Position numbers and translations under genes: made by a program
Shown: piece after piece, positions 1-934 of the stretch
Position numbering within the stretch: the stretch's first letter is position 1
Layout: every line of letters begins with the position of its first letter
Assembly (NCBI GenBank): GCA_020284085.1
Contig: JACEVL010000144.1
Span: forward strand, 747,501-811,500
Direction of reading: 5' to 3'
Length of the DNA stretch: 64,000 nt
Source of the DNA: Aporrectodea caliginosa
Taxonomy: Eukaryota; Annelida; Clitellata; Crassiclitellata; Lumbricidae
The notes under the pieces: model-generated
Told to the model about the DNA's origin: nothing
Databases searched by the model: none
What the model saw: only the letters and a program-made list of their open reading frames with translations

Positions 1-934
1 CGGCTCCCCAGTTTCACTGATGGTCAGAACACTCCCTCAATACCGTATATATACAAACGGTTCAGAGGGTAACGGTACTATGATTGACAACAAGGACTCG
101 CCAATCAATGATATGTGGTTCATCATGGATGTCGTGTTCATTACGTGGTTCACCCTCGAATTCGCGGTTCGTTTATGGGCCTCTCCCAGCAGGCTTGACT
201 TCATCAAGGATGCGTTTAACATCATCGATATTGAGGCCAATGTGTTCTACTACATCTCACTCATGCTGTACCTGTTGAACCCCAGGAAGAATATTGCGGA
301 CAGTGCAATGGTCTTACCGATCTTCCGAATCGTGCGCGTTTTCAAGTTGGCCAGACACTCGCCGGGCTTGAGGTCGTTGGGTCGTGCAATAGGTCGTAGT
401 TTCAATGAGCTGATGTTGCTCGTAATGTCTCTAGCAATCGGGGTCATTGTTTTCTCCACTCTTATCTACTTTGCTGAGATAGATGAACATAATAATGACT
501 ATTTCAGCATCCCATATGTTTTCTGGTGGGTTGTGGTCACCATGACAACCGTAGGCGCAGGAGACAGGAGACCATTGACGGTTTGGGGCAAAGTGGTTGG
601 GGCTGCGTGCTGCATCTGTGGAGTTCTGTTCATTGTCCTACCCATTCCAATCCTAGTCAACAACTTCATGGTATGTTACGGGGATCAGATAAGTCGCGAT
701 AACGCTCTAAAGCGTCGCGAGGCCCTCGATCTGGCTAAAGGGAGTGGCGACATCGTAAGCCTCAGTGCGGTTAATGGCCTGGATGTGAACTGTAATGGTA
801 CTGGTGGTGTTGGTGGTGGTAAAGACCCGGTCGAGGTTCAGATAGAGTCCAGTCCTTTACTCCAGGAGACTGGCCGGAACGAAAAAGAAGATCAGCCACG
901 CATCCAGTCCATCGGGGCGGTCAGTTCCATCTAG
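1..934 (+). CDS. Kv2/Shab-like voltage-gated K+ channel, copy A, last exon (5' truncated by window)
   Basis: Membrane voltage-gated potassium channel alpha subunit; the last coding exon runs from the window edge (codon frame 2, 5, 8...) to a TAG stop at 932-934. The translation covers the end of S1, the S1-S2 loop with two N-glycosylation sequons (NGS, NGT), S2 (WFTLEF, charge-transfer F and E kept), S3 (NIIDIEANVFYY), S4, S5, the pore and S6 ([10 protein letters not shown]), then a cytoplasmic stretch [15 protein letters not shown]. That stretch and KLARHSxGLxSLG after S4 are typical of Kv2/Shab. Odd features: the filter is TVGAGD where nearly all K+ channels have TVGYGD (GCA codon at 557-559); S4 keeps only R, R, K, R; the canonical S3 proline is gone. 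The tail is about 85 residues, far shorter than vertebrate Kv2.1, and ends VSSI, which fits a class I PDZ ligand. Upstream exons lie outside the window. Family is clear; whether it conducts K+ is open. Confidence 0.9.
   Translation, partial: GSPVSLMVRTLPQYRIYTNGSEGNGTMIDNKDSPINDMWFIMDVVFITWFTLEFAVRLWASPSRLDFIKDAFNIIDIEANVFYYISLMLYLLNPRKNIADSAMVLPIFRIVRVFKLARHSPGLRSLGRAIGRSFNELMLLVMSLAIGVIVFSTLIYFAEIDEHNNDYFSIPYVFWWVVVTMTTVGAGDRRPLTVWGKVVGAACCICGVLFIVLPIPILVNNFMVCYGDQISRDNALKRREALDLAKGSGDIVSLSAVNGLDVNCNGTGGVGGGKDPVEVQIESSPLLQETGRNEKEDQPRIQSIGAVSSI

What the first reader, a model, noticed from the sequence alone, without database searches (positions are those of the whole stretch)
545..575. GAG instead of GYG selectivity filter in two tandem Kv2-like channels
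Seen: copy A reads TVGAGD (GCA at 557-559) and copy B TVGAGD (GCA at 12568-12570), both followed by RR where Kv2 has IY or MY. Known: the filter Tyr (or Phe) of TVGYGD is nearly universal in K+ channels and packs the filter against the pore helix. Tyr to Ala here needs all three codon bases changed and is fixed in both copies, while the rest of the pore, S6 and T1 are well kept. Inference: selected subunits with altered permeation, or non-conducting regulatory subunits like the vertebrate silent Kv group.
Basis: partly seen in the sequence, partly recalled or inferred. Interest (0 to 1): 0.8.

Follow-up and report, generated by a model that had tools for sequence, protein, structure and literature searches.

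The report
Potassium-channel genes with a broken filter
Two neighbouring potassium-channel genes, apparently from a segmented worm, have lost the tyrosine that normally builds the ion filter and one turn of the voltage sensor, yet keep open reading frames and the part that joins subunits together, so they may make natural "poison" or tuning subunits for normal channels, though nothing has been shown to be expressed.

Summary
Both tandem Kv2-like genes encode TVGAGDRR (GCA at 557-559 and 12568-12570); all 325 distinct proteins listed by three searches have TVGYGD at the aligned filter. Copy B reads as an uninterrupted 561-residue protein over three exons with GT-AG junctions; copy A is cut by the window edge. 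Trees place this clade inside Kv2 beside a leech Kv2, with moderate support and a long-branch warning. The assembly domain of B is well kept (T1 61% identical to 13 canonical Kv2, with CDD and zinc motifs), the voltage sensor is at 39%. Frames are maintained, but dN/dS between copies is about 1, so a decaying pair is not excluded. The same change made in another channel (SynK Y181A) abolished current (PMC2853561). Best reading: a fast-evolving, probably annelid Kv2 paralogue that cannot conduct alone and, if expressed, acts as a dominant-negative or modulatory subunit. Expression and currents are untested; the host-genome search did not complete.

The parts
2..934 (+). copy A, 3' exon (end of S1 to C-terminus, 310 aa, stop at 932-934); upstream exons lie outside the window
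   Evidence: Pfam Ion_trans 5.6e-37
311..358 (+). copy A S4, VLPIFRIVRVFKLARH: one Arg triplet fewer than canonical Kv2
548..571 (+). copy A selectivity filter TVGAGD followed by RR; GCA at 557-559
638..655 (+). copy A S6 LPIPIL (PXP motif kept)
7488..7831 (+). copy B exon 1 (chosen start Met to mid-T1), donor TCAAG|GTCAAA, predicted from sequence only
   Evidence: BTB_2 4.1e-10
7653..7658 (+). copy B T1 Lys-Arg at the position of Arg31-Arg32 of Kv2.1
   Evidence: role of the arginines from PMC9159280
7779..7787 (+). copy B T1 CDD motif
   Evidence: role from PMC9159280
8527..8821 (+). copy B exon 2 (rest of T1; zinc motif H 8570, C 8588, CC 8651-8656), acceptor CTCCAG|GTC, donor GTG|GTAAGT, predicted from sequence only
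11896..12942 (+). copy B exon 3 (S1 to C-terminus, 348 aa, stop 12940-12942), acceptor TTTCTTTCAG|TGG, predicted from sequence only
12040..12117 (+). copy B in-frame 78-bp (26-codon) insertion, a tandem repeat of the S1-S2 extracellular loop
12322..12369 (+). copy B S4, [16 protein letters not shown]: one Arg triplet fewer
12559..12582 (+). copy B selectivity filter TVGAGD followed by RR; GCA at 12568-12570
12649..12666 (+). copy B S6 LPIPIL (PXP motif kept)

Best explanation
These are two tandem, open, fast-evolving Kv2 (Shab) paralogues, probably of an annelid and perhaps a clitellate. Shown: GAG filter, S4 shortened by one charge triplet, open frames with only in-frame indels between the copies, and in copy B a Kv2-type T1 with CDD and zinc motifs. 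Inferred: with Ala in place of the filter Tyr the homotetramer does not conduct; the protein still joins canonical Kv2 subunits through T1 and either silences the mixed channel (dominant negative) or retunes its gating. The S4 loss probably came first (P0122 has it with GYG), so a gating or regulatory role may predate the loss of the filter.
For: Filter unique to A and B: 325 of 325 listed proteins GYG. GAGD precedent: SynK Y181A reached the membrane and gave no current, n=6, data not shown, the authors citing Heginbotham 1994 for GAGD channels in general (PMC2853561, passages and reference list). S4: 322 of 325 have three Arg triplets before the Lys; of the other three only P0122 has a deletion. 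T1 of B: Kv2.1 is the best solved match (2.5e-58; next subfamily Kv3.1 2.4e-24); CDD and HX5CX20CC present. B to 13 canonical Kv2: T1 61, S5-S6 60, S2-S4 39% against 78, 82, 81 among 78 canonical pairs: assembly domain kept, sensor lost. Frames: coding gaps 78, 6 and 3 bases against 10 gaps (8 frame-breaking) in 461 aligned flank bases. Replacements between the copies avoid Kv2-conserved columns: 16 of 119 against 49 of 190, P=0.01, and are conservative, P=0.001. Regulatory subunits arose independently in Shaker and Shal of cnidarians and Shab of vertebrates, with fast divergence noted; Helobdella has 6 Shab genes, Capitella 1 (PMC3519636, passages).
Against: dN/dS between copies 1.14 (0.72-2.03), not different from 1 (Fisher P 0.80). 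Unlike silent Kv, the second PXP proline is kept, so nothing in S6 predicts a failure to form homomers. No protein nearly identical to A or B is among the rows listed by the three searches, although their length limits miss fragments. No canonical Kv2 of the same genome could be looked for (genome search did not complete). The conserved-column test is modest and depends on alignment A4; exon conversion could lower apparent coding divergence. Shab expansion alone is no sign of regulatory subunits: C. elegans has 6 Shab genes as well (PMC3519636 table).
Confidence: 0.5

Rival explanations
1. Decaying duplicates: a Kv2 paralogue under relaxed constraint on its way to becoming a pseudogene, the filter and S4 changes being tolerated damage.
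For: dN/dS about 1 over 309 codons by three methods (dN/dS pairs NG86 .112/.098, LWL85 .110/.099, YN00 .118/.085, ratios about 1.1 to 1.4; bootstrap); long stem branches (0.97 and 1.16 changes per column); RR after the filter and a 26-codon loop repeat in B.
Against: Copy B is open over 561 codons with GT-AG junctions. All three coding indels keep frame; at the flank's indel rate about 16 frameshifts are expected in 930 bp (Poisson P about 1e-7; rescaled by hand to the coding divergence, about 6 expected and P about 0.002). Simulated chance of no stop per lineage is 0.02-0.03 at the flank divergence but 0.22-0.24 at coding divergence, so the stops alone are weak evidence. T1 is far better kept than the voltage sensor.
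Confidence: 0.27
2. A conducting but poorly selective cation channel: without the Tyr the filter keeps only the lower sites, as in bacterial NaK (TVGDGN), and passes Na+ and K+.
For: NaK has TVGDGN with two sites and is non-selective, and changing it to TVGYGD makes it K+-selective (PMC9822992, abstract in the listing; PMC8689586, passages). Both glycines, Thr, Val, the filter Asp, FWW and PIP are kept.
Against: The Y-to-A mutant of SynK gave no current. RR replaces the residues after the filter, which should repel cations (inference). S4 is shortened.
Confidence: 0.15
3. Ordinary K+-selective channel in which the Ala filter is rescued by other changes.
For: S5-S6 60% identical to canonical Kv2, PXP kept.
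Against: No precedent among the 325 listed proteins; SynK Y181A non-conducting; no compensating aromatic residue is seen next to the filter (sequence).
Confidence: 0.04

Closest known systems
Kv2 / Shab (KCNB) channels
   Same: T1 and S1-S6; best solved matches are Kv2.1 for T1 (2.5e-58) and for the membrane part (1.8e-58); CDD, zinc motif and PIP kept
   Different: GAG filter, RR after it, S4 three residues short, S2-S4 39% identical
Vertebrate silent Kv (Kv5, Kv6, Kv8, Kv9)
   Same: Kv2-related, CDD motif, predicted here not to work alone
   Different: Silent Kv lack the second PXP proline (PMC4623978, passages), which A and B keep; silent Kv have GYG (recalled); A and B branch beside a leech Kv2 (no silent Kv in the trees). 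Silent Kv also lack the T1 arginine pair (PMC9159280, passages); B has Lys-Arg there
Cnidarian regulatory Shaker and Shal subunits
   Same: independent, lineage-specific regulatory subunits that diverge fast (PMC3519636, passages)
   Different: different Kv subfamilies; the phrase 'selectivity filter' occurs 0 times in that paper's main text
NaK channel
   Same: filter TVGxGx without the aromatic residue
   Different: bacterial, Asp rather than Ala, not voltage-gated (last point recalled)
P0122 (JGI metagenome protein, 321 aa)
   Same: same short S4, S3 Asn and C-tail; clade with A and B 100/99
   Different: keeps TVGYGDQL

Membership tests
Kv2 (Shab) | T1 closest to Kv2 T1, with CDD and HX5CX20CC | tested here: met
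   (copy B only)
Kv2 (Shab) | Membrane part branches inside Kv2, apart from Kv1 | tested here: met
Kv2 (Shab) | TVGYGD filter | tested here: not met
Kv2 (Shab) | S4 with three Arg triplets before the Lys | tested here: not met
Kv2 (Shab) | K+-selective delayed-rectifier current | not testable with these tools
   needs recordings
Vertebrate silent Kv (KvS) | Second proline of PXP lost | tested here: not met
   LPIPIL in both; criterion from PMC4623978
Vertebrate silent Kv (KvS) | T1 arginine pair lost | tested here: inconclusive
   B has Lys-Arg, so not the Arg-Arg of Kv2.1 but still basic; canonical Capitella Kv2 has His-Arg and Helobdella Arg-Arg at these columns; criterion from PMC9159280
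Vertebrate silent Kv (KvS) | CDD motif in T1 | tested here: met
   shared with Kv2, so it does not separate the two
Vertebrate silent Kv (KvS) | Branches with Kv5/6/8/9 | tested here: inconclusive
   no silent Kv sequence was in the trees; A/B branch with Helobdella and P0121
Vertebrate silent Kv (KvS) | No current alone, modulates Kv2 | not testable with these tools
   needs co-expression

The most novel reading that the evidence does not exclude
An annelid lineage turned a duplicated Kv2 gene into a dedicated pore-dead, charge-reduced subunit: a naturally evolved dominant-negative K+ channel gene carrying the same GAGD change that abolished current in SynK, and an independent protostome origin of Kv2 regulatory subunits.
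Probability: 0.35. Interest if true: 0.75.

Novelty: new variant of a known kind. Interest (0 to 1): 0.5.

Why it matters
The filter tyrosine is among the most conserved residues of K+ channels (here 325 of 325 listed relatives). An open gene pair that dropped it while keeping the assembly domain would be a natural counterpart of the dominant-negative pore mutants used in laboratories (that use is recalled), would add a protostome to the lineages that evolved Kv regulatory subunits independently, and gives a series (canonical Kv2, short-S4 GYG P0122, short-S4 GAG A/B) for testing how a channel becomes a regulator.

Tried and rejected
Rejected: sequencing error (the same three base differences in each of two diverged copies); RNA editing restoring Tyr (A-to-I on GCA leaves Ala); an alternative GYG exon (none found in the window); membership of the vertebrate silent group (PXP test, see membership test).

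Rfam K_chan_RES (potassium channel RNA editing signal) matches copy A at 551-664 just above threshold (51.4 against 51) and copy B below it (44.2). The alignments mark many non-standard pairs, so I read it as homology of the coding sequence, not as an editing hairpin.

AlphaFold2 of copy B exon 3 (46-row alignment A4: 2 window rows and 44 of the 325 listed proteins) gave pLDDT 72.8, pTM 0.50 and a Kv-type match, best Kv2.1 8sda_A with TM 0.50 by query length. It says nothing on conduction.

No other member of the short-S4 clade was seen: three protein searches gave 322, 928 and 370 hits (the last at E up to 1e-10), 120 best rows listed each, 7,995-7,996 candidates scored each; only P0122. Literature: ten answered searches (three of them returned nothing) listed no paper on a natural GAG-filter Kv channel or on protostome Kv2 regulatory subunits; one search listed 12 of 20. 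The library lacks most subscription papers and Heginbotham 1994 is not held. PMC6054404 (passages) lists five Shab contigs in Hirudo; their filters were not seen.

Full report
What is there. Copy A is a single exon at 2-934 whose upstream exons lie outside the window. Copy B has three predicted exons, 7488-7831, 8527-8821 and 11896-12942, with GT-AG junctions, giving one 561-residue open protein (no transcript was seen). Pfam finds Ion_trans in both and BTB_2 in exon 1 of B. Against solved structures T1 and membrane part both match Kv2.1 best. No further Kv exon was found in the window.

The filter. Both copies read TVGAGDRR. In a MAFFT alignment of A, B and the 325 distinct proteins listed by three searches, 325 of 325 have TVGYGD at these columns (in one search a simple pattern had missed 2 of the first 120, which the alignment settles). 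The set is the best 120 rows listed for each of three searches with 322, 928 and 370 hits, so it is a sample of the nearest relatives, not a census.

A second change. Canonical Kv2 S4 reads [20 protein letters not shown]; A has VLPIFRIVRVFKLARHS and [18 protein letters not shown], three residues and one Arg fewer. 322 of 325 listed proteins have three Arg triplets before the Lys; P0244 has a one-residue insertion, P0313 an Arg-to-Leu, and only P0122 shares the deletion. P0122, from a JGI metagenome, also shares an S3 Asn and the C-terminal tail but has TVGYGDQL. So the S4 change is probably the older one, and the filter change is confined to A and B as far as seen.

Whose gene. A, B and P0122 form a clade (100/99) beside P0121 (a canonical Kv2 of unstated origin) and the leech Helobdella (41 rows; the program warns that long branches meet between P0122 and A/B). 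Leaving out P0122, or A and B, keeps the remaining ones in the same place with moderate support (88/58 and 88/70; 96/99 and 94/61). The T1 domain alone groups B with Helobdella (85/90; its bootstrap had not settled). Against a clean annelid story, other annelid Kv2 (Capitella and Ridgeia, a second Helobdella protein P0244) do not join this group. It fits with 6 Shab genes in Helobdella against 1 in Capitella (PMC3519636) and 5 Shab contigs in Hirudo (PMC6054404); C. elegans also has 6.

Constraint. Between A and B, NG86 dN 0.112, dS 0.098, ratio 1.14 (0.72-2.03; Fisher P 0.80); by part: S1-S3 1.17, S4-S5 0.98, pore-S6 0.60, tail 0.93 (the parts rest on few changes). Against plain decay: 94 mismatches in 930 coding bases and gaps of 78, 6 and 3, versus 107 in 461 flank bases and gaps of 1, 3, 4, 2, 13, 17, 17, 1, 1, 3 (MAFFT). 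The flank figures depend on the alignment: BLAST of a slightly different stretch gave 540 columns, 72% identity, 88 gap positions in 21 openings, which by hand is about 14% mismatches, less than MAFFT's 23%, but with more gaps. Replacements fall on 16 of 119 columns that are at least 90% conserved among the 43 canonical rows of A4 and on 49 of 190 others (Fisher P 0.0099; A4 counts 65 replacements, A1 counts 63), and are more conservative than random single-base changes (P 0.001). In one search both copies share 23 deviations from conserved columns, 3 are A only, 6 B only, 7 differ in both, 80 are kept. Divergence per 100 bp is 5% in the first, 10-18% over 101-600, 2-6% over 601-900, 10% across the stop and 12-38% beyond, so conversion between copies is possible and the two GAG codons are best counted as one event.

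Mechanism. Shown: the sequence facts above. From print: a Y-to-A filter in SynK is expressed and silent, and its authors say GAGD channels in general are (PMC2853561); NaK without the Tyr is non-selective; CDD distinguishes Kv2 and silent Kv T1 from Kv3 and Kv4 (PMC9159280). Inferred: copy B, whose T1 keeps CDD, a Lys-Arg pair and the zinc motif, can join Kv2 tetramers, and such tetramers conduct less or gate differently. T1 at 61% against S2-S4 at 39% is what an assembly-first subunit would show. A pseudogene would not be expected to show that contrast, but the contrast may have arisen before any decay began.

Verdict. A real and unusual feature, with a plausible role as a regulatory or dominant-negative subunit, not established without expression data.

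Noticed in passing
window 551-664 (+) and 12562-12675 (+): Rfam K_chan_RES (potassium channel RNA editing signal) matches both copies over filter to S6, 51.4 and 44.2 bits against a threshold of 51; probably coding homology, since many pairs are broken.
   Followed up: yes
window 25517-25960 (+), with ORF 23777-24445 (+) upstream: Nanos RNA-binding zinc-finger domain (zf-nanos, 8.2e-23); the upstream ORF, without a Pfam match, may be its N-terminal exon (guess).
   Followed up: partly
window 37465-38361 and 39421-39762 (-): Protein arginine methyltransferase exons (PRMT_C 2.6e-34; the second piece matched PrmA at 4.2e-05), PRMT6-like by eye.
   Followed up: partly
window 12040-12117 (+): Copy B carries a 26-codon in-frame tandem repeat of the S1-S2 extracellular loop with an extra NGS and NGT sequon.
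   Followed up: partly
protein P0122 (no window coordinates): Metagenome Kv2-like protein with a short S4 but GYG filter: a possible intermediate; its source organism is unknown.
   Followed up: partly
window 41900-43600, 9900-11040, 20900-21500: Long simple-repeat tracts that give open frames in several phases; not taken as genes.
   Followed up: no
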